NCBI GenBank assembly: GCA_001664505.1
Contig: CP011806.1
Span: forward strand, 1,092,400 to 1,156,399
Length of the DNA stretch: 64,000 nucleotides
Direction: 5' to 3'
From: Acidobacteria bacterium Mor1
GTDB taxonomy: Bacteria > Acidobacteriota > Polarisedimenticolia > Polarisedimenticolales > Polarisedimenticolaceae
Below, piece after piece: positions 2,397 to 8,990 of this stretch. The notes under the pieces are model-generated. The model was given only the letters and a program-made list of their open reading frames with translations, did no database searches and was not told where the DNA came from. The translations under genes were made by a program, and so were the position numbers. Each line of letters starts with the position of its first letter. The stretch's first letter is position 1.

Positions 2397-2472
2397 TGGT
2401 GGACGGCAAGGGGATCGAACCCTCGACCTCGGCATTGCGAACGCCGCGCTCTCCCAACTGAGCTAGCCGCCC
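2397..2472 (-). tRNA. tRNA-Ala (anticodon CGC)
   Basis: The minus strand folds into a full cloverleaf. The acceptor stem GGGCGGC/GCCGTCC contains the G3-U70 pair that marks alanine tRNAs. The D arm is GCTC/GAGC, the anticodon loop TTCGCAA gives CGC at positions 34-36, and the T arm carries GTTCGATCC variants. CCA is encoded at 2397-2399. Confidence 0.95.
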
Positions 2473-2524
2473 GTACCTATTCGACTGACCCCATCCTCGG
2501 CGCCCGCAAGCTCCGGGGACGGAT

Positions 2525-2539
2525 CCCCCGGCCCGGGGG
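2525..2539. other. Inverted repeat between the two tRNA genes
   Basis: CCCCCG-GCC-CGGGGG forms a 6-bp GC-only stem in the spacer between tRNA-Val and tRNA-Ala. It may mark processing of a shared precursor or separate the two transcripts. No T run follows on either strand. Confidence 0.35.
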
Positions 2540-2568
2540 TCATCGGTTTCCGCCGGAACGGAGCCCGA

Positions 2569-2643
<75 letters not shown>

Positions 2644-2825: not shown

Positions 2826-2841
2826 TGGCACGGCACTTGCT
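2826..2841 (+). promoter_or_regulatory. Sigma-54 (-24/-12) promoter P1
   Basis: The sequence TGGCACG-GCAC-TTGCT matches the RpoN consensus TGGCACR-N4-TTGCW at every defined position, with GG at 2827-2828 and GC at 2839-2840 separated by exactly ten bases. The predicted start is about 2852. No ORF with a ribosome site follows before the terminator at 2901-2934. Confidence 0.85.
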
Positions 2842-2851
2842 CAATATGAGG

Positions 2852-2934
2852 GCGGAACGAAAAACCCCTGACTCCTTTTCCAGACCAGCACGATGGAAAG
2901 CCGGCGGGCCACCCCCCCGCCGGTTTTTGTTTTT
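2852..2934 (+). ncRNA. Predicted sigma-54-dependent small RNA 1 (about 83 nt)
   Basis: The 5' end is placed 12 bases after the -12 element and the 3' end at the T tract of an intrinsic terminator. The unpaired middle carries ACTCCTTTTCC, whose CTCCTTT part (2872-2878) is complementary to a strong Shine-Dalgarno AAAGGAG. TTTCC and GGAAA can form a small second hairpin before the terminator. There is no credible reading frame. Small RNAs under sigma-54 control are known (Qrr in Vibrio, GlmY/GlmZ in enterobacteria, Pxr in Myxococcus), but I see no family resemblance to those. Promoter and terminator are seen; the RNA and any target are inferred. Confidence 0.65.
2901..2934 (+). terminator. Intrinsic terminator of small RNA 1
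   Basis: CCGGCGGG (2901-2908) pairs perfectly with CCCGCCGG (2916-2923) around a C-rich 7-base loop, followed by T5-G-T5. Confidence 0.88.
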
Positions 2935-3086: not shown

Positions 3087-3101
3087 GTTGCATAGTGCAA
3101 C
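3087..3101. promoter_or_regulatory. Palindrome GTTGC-N5-GCAAC upstream of the activator gene
   Basis: GTTGCATAGTGCAAC is a perfect inverted repeat. It covers the -35 hexamer of the putative sigma-70 promoter, so binding should repress the downstream gene. It also lies about 240 bp downstream of the P1 start, close enough for enhancer action by looping. A copy with the same arms lies just after the gene at 8514-8528. Confidence 0.65.
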
Positions 3102-3116
3102 GGTTCGATCTATATC
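3088..3116 (+). promoter_or_regulatory. Putative sigma-70 promoter of the kinase/activator gene
   Basis: TTGCAT (3088-3093) and TATATC (3111-3116) are separated by 17 bp. The start would be near 3123, giving a leader of about 18 bases that begins with GAGGCGG, a usable though distant ribosome site for ATG 3141. Confidence 0.55.
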
Positions 3117-3140: not shown

Positions 3141-6100
3141 ATGAGCACTGCGACACCCCCTTCGATCGGACGTTTCAAGATCCTCCGCGAGCTCGGCCGC
3201 GGCGGCATGGGTGTGGTCTACCTGGCGGAAGACCCCGGCCGGAAGGAGCCGGTGGCCCTCAAGGTGCTCACCCGGGGCTTCTCCAGCTCCGCCCTGCGCC
3301 ATTTCGAGCAGGAGTTCCACATCCTGACCGGCCTCGATCACCCCAACCTGACCGAGGTGTACGACTTCGGCCGGGTGACCGAGCAAGGGGAAGAAGCCCC
3401 CTTCTTCACCATGGAGTTCGTCGACGGCGAGACCCTGGACCACCATTTCGACACTCTGGGCCGGGAACTGGACCGGCTCCCCGGCCTGCTGGCCCAGCTC
3501 GGCCACGCGCTGGCCTACCTCCACGGCCGGGGCCTGGTCCACCAGGACGTCAAACCTTCCAACGTCCTGGTCACCTCGGCGGGCCAGGCCAAGCTGATGG
3601 ACCTTGGGCTGGCCAGCACCGGCCACGAGGGCGCCGGCGCCGGCCGGGTGCGCGGCACCGTGGCCTACCTCTCGCCGGAAGCGGCCCGGGGGGAAGGGGT
3701 CGACCCCCGCTCGGATCTCTACAGCCTCGGATGCATGGCCTATCAACTGGTTACCGGGCGGCCACCCTTCCGGGGCGACAGCGCCCTGGGGATCCTCCGC
3801 GGACACCTGGAAGAGGCTCCGCTGGCCCCCTCCACCCTGAACCCCGAGACGCCGTCTCCCCTCGAGTCCCTGATTCTGAGATTGCTGGCCAAGGAGCCGG
3901 CCGACCGGCCCCAGAGCGCCGATCGCTTCCTGCACGAGTTGAACGAGGTCGCCGGCGGGGCGCTGACCATCGAATCCGCGGACACACGCCGCACCCGGGT
4001 GCTCGGCGCTGGATTCGTCGGCCGTGCTACGGAGTTGGAACGTCTGCAGCGGCAGGTTCGGGACGCCCGGGCCGGCCGCGGCCGCATGGTCTTCCTGGTC
4101 GGCGAGGCAGGGGTCGGCAAGAGCCGCCTGATTCGCGAGCTTCAGGTCCAGAGCCAGCTCGACGGCTTCGACCTCTACATCGGGCGCCCGCGGGAATCCC
4201 AGAGCGCCCTGGCCGATGCCCTGGACAGGGCGCTGCTCGACCGCGGAGCCGACGCCTCGGTAAGGGAACGGCTGGCGCCGCTGCTCGGCGAAGAGATCGA
4301 CGGGAGCGACCGCAATGTCGCCGGCGCTCCCCAACTGGCCAGCGCCCTCAGCGAGATTCTGTCGGATCTCTCCCGGGACAAACCGATCGGCCTGGCCCTG
4401 GAAGACCTGCACCTGGCCGACGAAACCACGTGCACGTTGCTGGCATCGGTGATGGAGCGTCTGGCCGACGCGCCGGGTGACCGCCCGAGTGTCCCGCTCC
4501 TGATCGTGGCGGCCTACCGCGGGGACGAGGTCTCCCGGGCGACTCCCCTGTTCGAGCTGCTCGAAGGCGCGAGGCGGGTGGATCAGATCGTCGAGGAGCA
4601 GGTCCTCGAACCGCTCTCCGCCGACGAAACCGATCAGCTGGTGCGCTCCCAGTGCGGCGCCTCGACGGTACCGCCGGCGTTCCTCGAACGAATCCTGGAA
4701 GAGACCCGGGGCAACCCGCTGCACATCGGCGAACTGCTGGCGCTCCTGGCCGAGGAGGGGCACCTGCGTCCCGGCGCCGAGAACCCCTTCGGCTCCTCGG
4801 CGCTCCAGAACCTCGAACTGCCCCGCAGGATTCATGACCTGCTCGCCCGCCGCCTCGAACGCGCCGGAGAGGAACCGATGGCGGTCCTCCAGGCCGGGGC
4901 GATCCTCGGCGGCATGACCCTCGACCCCGAAGCCATCGCTGCGGTGACCGGCCTGCGTTGGGAGCACGTCGTCGGACGCTTCCTCGAACTGCGCGAGACC
5001 GGCTTGCTGGAGCGGGAGCAGGTCGAGGGGCGCGAACCCGAGTACCGGCTCGTGCACCCGGTGCTGGCCGGGCTCGCCCTCGAGTCGATGCCCGCCGGCG
5101 AACAGAAGGAGCTTCACGCCCGGGCGGTTTCCTATCTCGAAAGACGGCGGATCCCGCGGCGCCACGGCGCCTGGAGGTCCCTGGCGCGGCACGCCGAAGC
5201 CGCCGGACAACCGGGCCGCGCCATCGAGGCCTACCGCCGGGCGGCAGACCTGGCCTGCGACCTGGCGGCCCACCGCGAGGCCGTCGCCGACTACAGCACC
5301 GCCATCGATCTCGCGTTGCGCCAACCCGCCACGCCGGCGACGGTGCTCTGCGAGCTTTACCAGCGACGCGGCGACACCCGCGCCCTGACCGGCGACCTGC
5401 GCCGCGCCGAGGAGGACTACCGCTGGATGCTGGCGCGGGCCGAGAAGAGTGGCGAGCAACACCTCAAGGCCTGGGCGCACCTCTCCCTCGGCGATGTCCT
5501 CGCCGCCGGCGAGCGGTACTCCGAAGCTCAGGATGAACTCGAGGTCGCCCTGGACATCGCCGAGCGGGTCGAGGAACCCGCCGTGATCGCGCGTTCCCAA
5601 CTGGCGCTGGGCGAGATCCTGGCCCGGCAGGATCGGTTCGACGAGGGTATTCGTTTCCTCGATGCGGCCGCCGAGGCGGCCCGGGACGCCGAGCGCGAGG
5701 ATCTCGCGATCCAGACGCTATTGCGCAAGGGTGTGCTGCTGCGCGAACACGGAGACCTCAAGGCGGCGCTGGCCTGCTACGAGGCGGTTCGCGAACGGAT
5801 CGGCGACCGCGCCGAGCCGTCGGTCGAGGTCTCGATCGACGAGGGCACTGCGGTGGCGCTGGAGGTCCAGGGAGACCTGGGCGGCGCCCTCGAGGCCTGC
5901 CGGCGGGCGCGGAAACGGGCGCAGGAGCTGGGAGACACCCGGCGCTCGGCCTCCCTATCGATCCGGGTCGGCCGCCTGCTCTCGATGCGCGGCGACATGA
6001 ACGGCGCCGACGAGGAACTGCGCGACGCCCTGCAGCGTCATCGCGACCTCGGCCTGCGGGAAGGGCTCGCCGCGACGCTCCACGCCCTGAGCCGGCTTCA

Positions 6101-8504
6101 GTCGCGCAGAGGCCGCTTCGCCGAGGCGGCGCGCAATGCGCGAGAAGCGCTGGAGCTCTGTCGAAGACTCGACCGGCGGGACCTGACCGCGACTTCGCTG
6201 ATGTTGCTCGGCGGCGTCGATCGAGATGCCGGCGATCCGGAACGAGCCGCGTCGCGCCTCGAAGAAGCCGACCGCATGATGAGCGGCTCGCGCAACCTGC
6301 AGTGGCACCCGGGCTTCCTGCTGGAGCTGGCCACGCTGCGCCATCTGCAGCGGAACTACGACGAGGCGATGAAGCTGTTCCAGGAGTCGGCCTTCCTCTC
6401 GCGCCGTGCGGGAGATCCACGCCGGGAGGCCCGGGCCTTCTGCGGCCTCGGTGAAGCGCATCTGTCCAGCAACGACTACGACCGCGCGCGGGTGGCGGTG
6501 CGCAAGGCGCTGCGCCTGGTGGAGTCTGGAGAATTCGGCCACGAGGTCTCTCTGGCCCGTCTGCTGCGGGCCAGGATCGAACTGGCCCTTCCCGGCGGCG
6601 ATCTGGTATCCGCCGAGCTCGACGCGGGAACCGCACTCGAGACCTTCCGCGAGTTGCAGCAACCCGAATGGGTCTGGCAGGCCGAGCATCTCGTCGGCCG
6701 GGCTCAACTGCGGCTCGGCCGTCGGTCCGACGCCATCGAACGACTGCAGCGTGCCCATCGCTACGTCGACCGGGCCCACGCCCGGCTCGACGGCCGCTTC
6801 CGGCGGACCTTCCTCGAACACCCGGCTCGCCGGGAACTGATCGAGGACTGGAAGCGCCTGCGTGTCGAGGCCGCCGAGGAGATCCCCCAGGAAGAGAAGG
6901 TCGAATCCGGCGAACTTGCGCGGGCGCAGAACACCATCGAAGCGCTGGAAGGCCTGCTCGACCTCAACCGCAAGTTCCTCTCTGCCGAGAGCACCGACGC
7001 ACTGCTCGATGCGATCCTCGAATCCGCGCTGCGCCACAGCGGCGCCGAGCGTGCGCTGCTTCTGGTCCGCGACGGCGAGGGCGAAATCGAGTTACGGCGC
7101 GGCCGCTCCGGCGACGGGCAGCCCCTGGGCAAGGAGGATGAGCGCTTCTCCCGCTCGATCGTCCAGGCAACCATCTCCCGGGGTTCTGCGCTCAGCGCAG
7201 CCGATGCCGAGGCGGACTCCCGCTTCAGCGGTTTCGAGTCGGTCCATGAACTGCGCATTCGTTCGGTGCTCTCGGTACCGCTTCCCGATAGTGGAGGCAC
7301 CACCGGCGCGCTCTATCTGGACGCCCGCATGAACCGCCGCGCCTTCTCCGTCGAACAGGAGAACCTGGTCGGCCGGCTCGCGGTCCAGGCCGCTCTGGCG
7401 CTGGGCCACGCATCCCTGCTGGAGCGGCTGGCTGAACAGAAGCAGAGCGTCGACCGGCTCAACCGCGAGCTCCAGAAGACCATCGCCGCGCAACGGGACG
7501 AGCTCGCCGAGGTGCGCGAGGCGCTCTCGTTCAGCCGCACCAGCATCGAGATGCGCTACCGCTTCGAGGACATCATCGGCGGCTCGCCGGTGATGCAGCG
7601 GGTCTATCACGTGATCGAGCGGCTGGCACCCAAACGGCTGCCGGTGCTGATCATCGGCGAATCCGGCACCGGCAAGGAGTTGATCGCGCGTGCGCTCCAC
7701 ACCAAGAGCGACCGCAGCAGCGGGCCCTTCTTCACGGTCAACTGCGCCGCGGTCAGCGAGACCCTGCTGGAGAGTGAGCTGTTCGGCTACCGCAAGGGCG
7801 CGTTCACCGGCGCCGACCGGGACAAGCCCGGCTACTTCGAGCTGGCCGACGGCGGAACGCTGTTCCTCGACGAGATCGGTGAGATGGGCCAGGCCATGCA
7901 GGCCAAACTGCTGCGGGCCATCGAACGGGGCGAGGTGATGCCCGTCGGCGGCAAGACGCCGAGCAAGATCGACGTGCGCATCGTCTGTGCGACCCACCGG
8001 GACCTGCCGGCGATGATCGCCGAGGGCGCCTTCCGCGAGGACCTCTACTACCGGGTCAACGTCGGCCGGGTCGATGTGCCCCCGCTGCGCAAGCGGCTCG
8101 ACGACGTGCCGCTGCTGATCGACCACTTCCTGGCCCGCCAGGCAGAAGAAGAAGGCACCGATCCACTGGAACTCGAACCCTCGGCACTCAAGGCGCTGCG
8201 ACAGCACCAGTGGCCCGGCAACGTCCGGGAGCTGCAGCACCAGTTGATGCGGGTCGCGACCTTCGCCAAGGGCAAGGTCATCACCGTCAAGGACGTGGCC
8301 CGCTACGCCGACCTGCCCAGCTCCAGACCCGGCGACCCGGCACCGGCCCAGGACGATCGCTCGGTGGTCAGCCTCGAGGAGCTCGAGCGCCGCCAGATCC
8401 AGAAAGCGCTGGAGTCCGCCGGAGGCAACAAGACCAAGGCCGCGGAGCTCCTGGGAATCAACCGGGCCACCCTGTTCCGCAAGCTGAAACGCTACGGGAT
8501 CTGA
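3141..8504 (+). CDS. Ser/Thr kinase - AAA ATPase - TPR - GAF - sigma-54 activator fusion
   Basis: This 1787-residue cytoplasmic protein should sense a signal, phosphorylate proteins and activate sigma-54 promoters. Residues 10-270 form a PknB-like kinase: glycine loop GRGGMGVV near 19, [12 protein letters not shown] near 134 (Gln replaces the usual Arg of HRD), DLGLA, and SPEAARG. Residues about 295-560 form an AAA_16/STAND-type ATPase with GEAGVGKS. A long helical TPR-like region follows to about 1250, then a GAF domain (about 1310-1435) and a short coiled coil. The sigma-54 AAA+ domain (about 1465-1700) has Walker A GESGTGKE at 1506-1513, intact GAFTGA at 1553-1558 and Walker B LFLDEIGE near 1575. 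A Fis-type helix-turn-helix ends the protein (about 1745-1787). It therefore keeps everything needed to contact sigma-54, hydrolyse ATP and bind DNA. Small-RNA promoters and palindromes on both sides point to its targets. The domain calls are firm; the signal is unknown. Confidence 0.93.
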
Positions 8505-8513
8505 GCCGGCACC

Positions 8514-8528
8514 GTTGCAAGCTGCAAC
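8514..8528. promoter_or_regulatory. Palindrome GTTGC-N5-GCAAC, putative enhancer site 1 for P2
   Basis: GTTGC-AAGCT-GCAAC is a perfect inverted repeat with the same arms as the site at 3087-3101. Its centre is about 139 bp upstream of the GG of the sigma-54 promoter at 8659, a normal distance for an enhancer-binding activator. Confidence 0.68.
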
Positions 8529-8542
8529 AGCCGGCGTCCACC

Positions 8543-8557
8543 TGTGCAACGTGCAAC
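8543..8557. promoter_or_regulatory. Imperfect palindrome, putative enhancer site 2 for P2
   Basis: TGTGC-AACGT-GCAAC keeps one full half-site and the inner TGC of the other. It is centred 29 bp after site 1 and about 110 bp before the sigma-54 promoter. Confidence 0.55.
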
Positions 8558-8658: not shown

Positions 8659-8674
8659 TGGCACGGGGGTTGCT
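8659..8674 (+). promoter_or_regulatory. Sigma-54 (-24/-12) promoter P2
   Basis: TGGCACG-GGGG-TTGCT matches the RpoN consensus at every defined position, with GG 8660-8661 and GC 8672-8673 ten bases apart. P1 and P2 also share TTGCTC(A/T)ATA just past the -12 element. The predicted start is about 8685. Confidence 0.87.
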
Positions 8675-8684
8675 CTATAGGGGG

Positions 8685-8920
8685 GCAGGCAACGGCGAAC
8701 CCGAGAGGGGCCGTAGGAGAGAGCGGACAACGTTCTTCGTTTGCTTGAGAACGGTAGAGAACCCCCTCCTGCGATCCGATCGATCCTCGGTCTTTCGAGG
8801 GAGCGCTGGCAGCGGAGTGCCACTGGTCGCTATGAGGCTCCACCGGCCCATAGATTCTTGCACTCCCCCCCGACTCCGGCGGCCCGACGTCGCGAAAGCG
8901 ACGCCGGGCCGTTGTTTTTT
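8685..8920 (+). ncRNA. Predicted sigma-54-dependent small RNA 2 (about 236 nt)
   Basis: The RNA is bounded by P2 and the terminator at 8881-8920. Several hairpins are readable: CGTTCT/AGAACG (about 8730-8753), CCTCG/CGAGG around GTCTTT, and TGGCA/TGCCA with GCGGAG in the loop. Between them lies CCCCCTCCT (8762-8770), containing CCTCCT, the complement of a perfect Shine-Dalgarno sequence. A second C-rich run (ACTCCCCCCCGACTCC) precedes the terminator; small RNA 1 has a similar C7 run. No frame has a ribosome site and coding character; the frame that runs through it belongs to the gene at 9001. Function and targets are inferred only. Confidence 0.65.
8881..8920 (+). terminator. Intrinsic terminator of small RNA 2
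   Basis: A 13-bp stem with one mismatch (8881-8893 with 8898-8910) closes on a GAAA tetraloop and is followed by GTTGTTTTTT. Confidence 0.92.
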
Positions 8921-8960: not shown

Positions 8961-8990
8961 TTGACAGCCCGCAGAGCGCAACACTATTCT
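8961..8990 (+). promoter_or_regulatory. Sigma-70 promoter of the DUF4783-like / NtrY-like operon
   Basis: A perfect -35 TTGACA (8961-8966) and -10 TATTCT (8985-8990) are 18 bp apart. The start would fall near 8997, only about four bases before ATG 9001, so the message would be nearly leaderless. Confidence 0.7.

What the first reader, a model, noticed from the sequence alone, without database searches (positions are those of the whole stretch)
8659..8920. Small RNA 2: 236-nt predicted sigma-54 transcript with enhancer-like sites at the right distance
P2 is a consensus sigma-54 promoter. Two palindromes lie 110-140 bp upstream, where enhancer-binding proteins normally bind. The downstream terminator has a 13-bp stem, a GAAA loop and a T run, which isolates it from the next operon.
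Basis: partly seen in the sequence, partly recalled or inferred. Interest (0 to 1): 0.78.

Follow-up and report, generated by a model that had tools for sequence, protein, structure and literature searches.

The report
Conserved sigma-54 small RNA beside its activator
This stretch is very probably a real small-RNA gene, switched on by the sigma-54 activator encoded next to it; a companion RNA on the activator's other side has changed in step with the ribosome-binding region of one lipoprotein mRNA, which points to an undescribed control circuit in a poorly known class of Acidobacteriota.

Summary
8659-8673 is a perfect sigma-54 -24/-12 element. Its palindrome GTTGCANNNTGCAAC occurs exactly only twice in the 5.985-Mb genome, once on each side of the kinase/sigma-54-activator (bEBP) gene 3141-8504. 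The 236-nt RNA folds far better than shuffles and ends in a terminator. Sixteen loci from sixteen class Polarisedimenticolia genomes, the window included, repeat the arrangement: palindrome, sigma-54 promoter, structured RNA. All 13 RNAs tested fold better than shuffles (z -2.4 to -6.2), and the main stem shows compensatory changes. Downstream genes differ or have their own sigma-70-type promoter, so it is an independent sRNA gene, in no Rfam family.

The partner RNA at 2852-2934 is a conserved, predicted trans-acting sRNA: a 17-nt perfect complement covers the Shine-Dalgarno region of one lipoprotein gene, the same lipoprotein family is hit in ten genomes of another bacterial family, and a second pairing site covaries.

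The target of RNA2 (this finding) was not found: pairing with the lipoprotein mRNA, RNA1 and bEBP mRNA gave no consistent signal. Expression, rpoN presence and activator binding are untested. Closest known: Pxr, Qrr, GlmY. New variant of a known kind.

The parts
2826..2840 (+). P1: perfect sigma-54 -24/-12 element (TGGCACGGCACTTGC) of partner small RNA 1
   Evidence: conserved in 8 loci
2852..2934 (+). RNA1: predicted ~80-nt small RNA with terminator (stem 2896-2928, T run)
2868..2884 (+). RNA1 seed 1 (CTGACTCCTTTTCCAGA): 17-nt perfect complement of the SD region of a lipoprotein gene at G000:C1:949979-950000 (L119)
2883..2892 (+). RNA1 seed 2 (GACCAGCACG): pairs with an element about 50 nt upstream of the same start codon; covaries across genomes
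3087..3101 (.). Palindrome GTTGCATAGTGCAAC, putative bEBP site overlapping the -35 of the bEBP gene's own putative sigma-70 promoter (TTGCAT-N17-TATATC)
3141..8504 (+). bEBP gene: Ser/Thr kinase, AAA_16, TPR, GAF, Sigma54_activat, HTH_8 (1787 aa); putative activator of P1 and P2
8514..8528 (.). Exact palindrome GTTGCAAGCTGCAAC, putative upstream activator site for P2
8543..8557 (.). Second, imperfect copy of the palindrome
8659..8673 (+). P2: perfect sigma-54 -24/-12 element (TGGCACGGGGGTTGC)
8685..8920 (+). RNA2: predicted 236-nt structured small RNA (the finding)
   Evidence: start inferred from sigma-54 spacing
8700..8713 (+). 5' arm of the conserved main stem of RNA2 (CCCGAGAGGGGCCG)
8761..8769 (+). 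C-rich ACCCCCTCC segment enclosed by the main stem, identical in L053 and L054 and similar in L056 and L062; candidate seed, partly accessible in prediction
8788..8801 (+). 3' arm of the conserved main stem (CGGTCTTTCGAGGG)
8877..8920 (+). Rho-independent terminator: stem with GAAA loop, then T run
8961..8990 (+). Putative sigma-70 promoter of the downstream operon (TTGACA-18-TATTCT)

Best explanation
8659-8920 is a free-standing sigma-54-dependent small RNA gene, the second of two that flank the gene of their presumed activator, a fusion of Ser/Thr kinase, sensor domains and a sigma-54 activation domain with a Fis-type DNA-binding domain. The activator binds GTTGCANNNTGCAAC about 110-145 bp upstream of P2 and, after sensing an unknown signal, drives sigma-54 polymerase to make RNA2. 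A further copy, overlapping the -35 of the activator's own promoter, probably lets it repress itself and may serve P1 as a downstream enhancer. RNA1 acts in trans by pairing with the 5' leader and Shine-Dalgarno region of a lipoprotein mRNA, probably blocking translation. RNA2 most likely also pairs with mRNAs through its accessible C-rich or CUCCUU-type segments, but its targets are not identified. Shown here: the sequence elements, their conservation, the compensatory stem, and the RNA1-target complementarity. Inferred: transcription, activator binding, direction of regulation, and everything about how RNA2 acts. The confidence given is for the sRNA gene and its sigma-54/bEBP control; for RNA2 acting by mRNA pairing I would say about 0.55.
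For: Perfect P2 and a genome-unique pair of palindromes. Promoter pattern only in P1/P2 intervals, 16/16 on one strand, 0 elsewhere. Palindrome upstream of P2 in all 16 loci, 100-170 bp in 15. All 13 RNA2s tested fold better than shuffles, z -2.4 to -6.2. Main stem: 92% of cells paired, 8/14 pairs with changes on both sides, covariation 0.53 versus at most 0.205 for slid versions, 0/500 shuffles. A covariance model from eight loci finds a strong copy in 11 of the 12 genomes of family f6, and the three copies not used to build it also have palindrome and promoter. No conserved reading frame: block spacings are not multiples of 3. The downstream operon has its own promoter. RNA1 pairs with the lipoprotein start region at z -3.4 to -6.5, 0/200 shuffles in each of six tests, and not significantly with the tandem paralogue; second site 7/12 pairs compensatory, 0/500.
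Against: No RNA or protein data. rpoN was not searched for. The covariance model from family f6 does not recover the window's RNA2, so homology of the window copy rests on position, promoter, palindrome and stem, with the arms of three of the ten rows chosen by eye. RNA2 showed no consistent pairing with the lipoprotein leader, RNA1 or the bEBP mRNA. Covariation at RNA1 seed 1 alone is weak against shuffles (43/500) and its targets outside the window genome were found with a pattern built from the seed. L054 has its palindrome only 43 bp from P2.
Confidence: 0.8

Rival explanations
1. RNA2 is the 5' leader (cis-regulatory element or attenuator) of the downstream operon rather than a separate small RNA.
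For: It lies directly upstream of a co-oriented 150-aa ORF and histidine-kinase gene in the window.
Against: A strong terminator ends it and the operon has its own sigma-70-type promoter at 8961-8990, recurring in L053, L056 and L062. In family f6 the gene behind it is a different one.
Confidence: 0.07
2. The transcript is the mRNA of a small protein.
For: A few relatives have short ORFs behind a purine-rich stretch (L056, L063, L094).
Against: None in the window RNA, none conserved, and spacing between conserved blocks varies by non-multiples of 3. Conservation follows base pairing, not codons.
Confidence: 0.04
3. RNA2 is a real sigma-54 small RNA but works by titration, for example as a decoy that protects or tunes RNA1 in the manner of GlmY and GlmZ, or by binding a protein, not by pairing with its own mRNAs.
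For: Both RNAs share a CUCCUU(UU) segment in several family f6 genomes and would be induced together; RNA2 is large and highly structured; no RNA2 target was found.
Against: The shared segment is absent from the window's RNA2 and from L063 and L094. No pairing between RNA1 and RNA2 beyond chance. No adaptor protein was sought.
Confidence: 0.2

Closest known systems
Pxr small RNA of Myxococcus (Rfam RF01812)
   Same: Small RNA in the intergenic region just downstream of a sigma-54 activator gene (nla19), with its own sigma-54 promoter (PMC5568312).
   Different: No match to the Pxr model on this strand (14.3 bits on the other strand, gathering 80). nla19 is described there as a response regulator; here the activator carries a Ser/Thr kinase. 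Two RNAs flank it.
Qrr1-5 with LuxO in Vibrio
   Same: Small RNAs from sigma-54 promoters under a bEBP (PMC2680268, PMC10162802; titles and abstracts).
   Different: No Rfam match; different activator architecture; no quorum-sensing genes seen next to it.
GlmY/GlmZ with QseEF in enterobacteria
   Same: glmY is transcribed from a sigma-54 promoter with upstream activator sites (PMC6075780); two small RNAs act in one envelope circuit (PMC7073468; both abstracts).
   Different: No sequence match. No RapZ counterpart sought. Here the two RNAs are not similar overall.
MicL repressing Lpp in E. coli
   Same: Works alike for RNA1 only: a small RNA directed at an outer-membrane lipoprotein (MicL and Lpp, PMC12137417).
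   Different: MicL is, from memory, sigma-E-dependent; this lipoprotein has no Pfam family and is not Lpp.

Membership tests
Sigma-54-dependent small RNA under a neighbouring bEBP | -24/-12 promoter at the 5' end of the RNA | tested here: met
Sigma-54-dependent small RNA under a neighbouring bEBP | Candidate activator site upstream at typical enhancer distance | tested here: met
   palindrome 100-170 bp upstream in 15 of 16 loci; binding itself not tested
Sigma-54-dependent small RNA under a neighbouring bEBP | Adjacent gene encodes a sigma-54 activator with intact AAA+ domain and GAFTGA | tested here: met
Sigma-54-dependent small RNA under a neighbouring bEBP | Expression requires RpoN and the bEBP | not testable with these tools
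   no expression data; the rpoN gene itself was not searched for
Independent small RNA gene | Own promoter and terminator, no conserved ORF, conserved structure | tested here: met
Trans-acting base-pairing small RNA (RNA2) | Conserved complementarity to an mRNA | tested here: inconclusive
   lipoprotein leader, tandem paralogue, RNA1 and bEBP start region gave no consistent signal; no genome-wide target search possible
Trans-acting base-pairing small RNA (RNA1) | Conserved complementarity to an mRNA | tested here: met
Pxr (RF01812) | Match to the Rfam model at gathering score | tested here: not met
Any Rfam 15 family | Match at gathering score for RNA1 or RNA2 | tested here: not met
   only tRNAs found in the window and eight relatives

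The most novel reading that the evidence does not exclude
A kinase-fused sigma-54 activator drives two co-induced but structurally different small RNAs that act jointly on one envelope lipoprotein circuit: RNA1 silences the lipoprotein mRNA through a two-site pairing and RNA2 controls RNA1's stability or access, or a shared RNA-binding protein, while the activator represses itself through the same palindrome.
Probability: 0.2. Interest if true: 0.75.

Novelty: new variant of a known kind. Interest (0 to 1): 0.62.

Why it matters
I found no literature on small-RNA regulation in this class. The module links a one-protein kinase/sensor/sigma-54 activator directly to post-transcriptional control. 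It comes with a named predicted target for one of the two RNAs, so the idea that a sigma-54 circuit controls an envelope lipoprotein in this class can be tested with a simple two-plasmid reporter. It also gives two new RNA families, both supported by covariation (within the RNA for RNA2, with its target for RNA1).

Tried and rejected
A DNA-level search for RNA2 in the family found only short chance matches. Rfam at gathering and relaxed thresholds gave nothing. The search for related loci with the bEBP gave one true ortholog, Candidatus Polarisedimenticola svalbardensis, plus distant paralogues. A third, one-mismatch palindrome at 4,872,825 lies near no sigma-54 promoter and was treated as chance. 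I suspected that RNA2's C-rich segments pair with a conserved G-tract (AAAGGGGGTCGGT) about 100 nt upstream of the lipoprotein start, but duplex energies were mostly no better than shuffles; dropped. RNA1 x RNA2 and RNA2 x bEBP start region: no signal. Lower-scoring kinase-bEBP relatives (L099-L102) also have sigma-54 promoters behind them, but several lead into small secreted-protein genes, so they were not counted as orthologs. Alignment A1 included one row read on the wrong strand and was replaced by A2; A7 had one row out of register and was replaced by A8.

Full report
Observation. The sequence is as described. P2 (8659-8673, TGGCACGGGGGTTGC) is a perfect -24/-12 element, one of only two in the window and of 14 of that strict form plus W in the genome. 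Near-matches are not enriched in the window, so a match alone proves little. The palindrome at 8514-8528 is exact; the one at 8543-8557 is imperfect. In the 5.985-Mb genome the exact palindrome GTTGCANNNTGCAAC occurs only at 8514 and at 3087, on the two sides of the activator gene. The RNA from 8685 to 8920 folds at -112.6 kcal/mol, z -4.1, and ends in a stem with GAAA loop and a T run.

Surroundings. The gene between the two perfect promoters, 3141-8504, encodes a Ser/Thr kinase, AAA_16, TPR repeats, GAF, sigma-54 activation domain and HTH_8. P1 at 2826 precedes a short RNA with terminator. Downstream of RNA2 lie a 150-aa ORF and a 1355-aa histidine kinase behind a TTGACA-18-TATTCT promoter; similar promoters recur at the corresponding place in L053, L056 and L062.

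Relatives. A protein search found orthologs in 11 of 41 class genomes, the window's included, and a profile found more in family f6. Among 199 genomes drawn from the phylum, none outside the class passed E 1e-190. Of the first ten loci, nine have P2 behind the bEBP with the palindrome upstream. The tenth, L065, did not in the stretch fetched, but its RNA2 was later found 4.8 kb downstream on the same contig, with promoter and palindrome. Four more came and two more. That makes 16 loci from 16 genomes, the window included. For G022 (L118) only the C-terminal part of a bEBP was found, about 3 kb upstream, and for G031 RNA2 and bEBP are on different contigs. Across the first ten loci the promoter pattern hits only the P1 and P2 intervals, all on the bEBP strand, and nowhere else in 264,800 position-strands. 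The palindrome core starts 100-170 bp before P2 in 15 of 16; in L054 it is 43 bp.

RNA2 is a structured RNA. All 13 tested copies fold better than dinucleotide shuffles, z -2.4 to -6.2, part of which is due to the terminator. The main stem, compared in ten copies, keeps 92% of pairs, with 8 of 14 pairs showing changes on both sides; covariation 0.53 against at most 0.205 when slid, and 0 of 500 shuffles. The arms of three rows (window, L053, L056) were picked by eye from their folds, which favours pairing in those rows. A covariance model from eight family f6 copies finds a strong copy in 11 of the 12 f6 genomes, plus one weak match overlapping the true copy on the other strand in G032. Eight of these built the model; the copies in G033, G031 and G022 are independent, and each has the palindrome and promoter in front. 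The model does not find the window's RNA2: the sequence has diverged too far, and its identity rests on position, promoter, palindrome and stem. No reading frame is conserved.

Activator autoregulation. In ten of ten loci with the stretch available, the palindrome before the bEBP gene overlaps a TTGC-type -35 that stands 17 bases before an ATA-containing -10-like hexamer (in L053 the second half-site serves). This suggests self-repression by the activator. Whether this site also serves P1 as a downstream enhancer is open; no second copy lies upstream of P1 in the window's genome.

Partner RNA1 has a predicted target. RNA1 carries CTGACTCCTTTTCCAGA. The complement of its core, GGAAAAGGAGTC, occurs exactly at only one other place in the genome, and there the match extends to 17 nt and covers the SD of a 289-aa lipoprotein gene. 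A class-wide search for GGAAAAGGAGYC before a start codon hit the same lipoprotein family in ten f6 genomes (G022, G023, G025, G026, G028-G033). The pattern came from the seed, so finding the seed is circular, but finding the same gene family is not. Duplex energies of RNA1 with these start regions beat all 200 shuffles in six of six tests, z -3.4 to -6.5, and are not significant with the tandem paralogue's start region. A second pairing site of 10-15 bp lies about 50 nt upstream of the start codon in six of the seven pairs compared; in the seventh (L093) the leader is cut by the contig end. That site was not part of the search pattern. In five genomes 7 of its 12 pairs have changes on both sides, 0/500 shuffles, though it was chosen as the longest helix. 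Covariation at seed 1 alone is weak, 43/500.

RNA2's target. Tests against the lipoprotein leader, both lipoprotein start regions, RNA1 and the bEBP start region gave no consistent signal; isolated values (L063 z -2.9, L095 and L067b about -2.3) are what several dozen tests can give. RNA2's mode of action therefore stays inferred.

Known systems. It works like the small RNAs under sigma-54 and a bEBP: Pxr (downstream of nla19; PMC5568312), Qrr and GlmY (abstracts). It is not a member of Pxr or any other Rfam family. What differs is the kinase-fused activator, the two flanking RNAs, the apparent double use of the palindrome and the two-site lipoprotein target of RNA1. No paper on such RNAs in this class was found.

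Verdict. Function of RNA2 beyond that is open.

Noticed in passing
L099:6381, L100:5508, L101:4681, L102:6050 (coordinates in those loci): Other kinase-bEBP genes of the class have a sigma-54 promoter 186-418 bp behind them, leading into small secreted proteins, some with repeats (GAIWG, NIGGAGP).
   Followed up: partly
L119 (G000:C1:949979-950000) and the tandem copies in L146, L147, L148, L151, L163, L164: Tandem lipoprotein family (GCAITNYPVI at the lipobox) without any Pfam match; in family f6 the leader has a conserved AAAGGGGGTCGGT element about 100 nt upstream of the start, unexplained.
   Followed up: partly
window 3087-3116: Activator palindrome overlaps the -35 of the activator gene's own putative promoter in ten of ten loci.
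   Followed up: yes
G000:C1 2710960, 3274469, 3506761 (L044, L047, L048): Three copies of an identical perfect sigma-54 element TGGCACACCCCTTGCT elsewhere in the genome; genes behind them not examined.
   Followed up: no
window 2397-2643 (-); also L054, L063, L064, L066, L067: A tRNA pair lies near the module in several families (Ala/Val in the window), possibly conserved synteny.
   Followed up: no
L118 (G022:C1:728500-742000): Only the last ~130 residues of a bEBP are found upstream of RNA2 in this single-contig, 74%-complete genome; decay or assembly error.
   Followed up: partly
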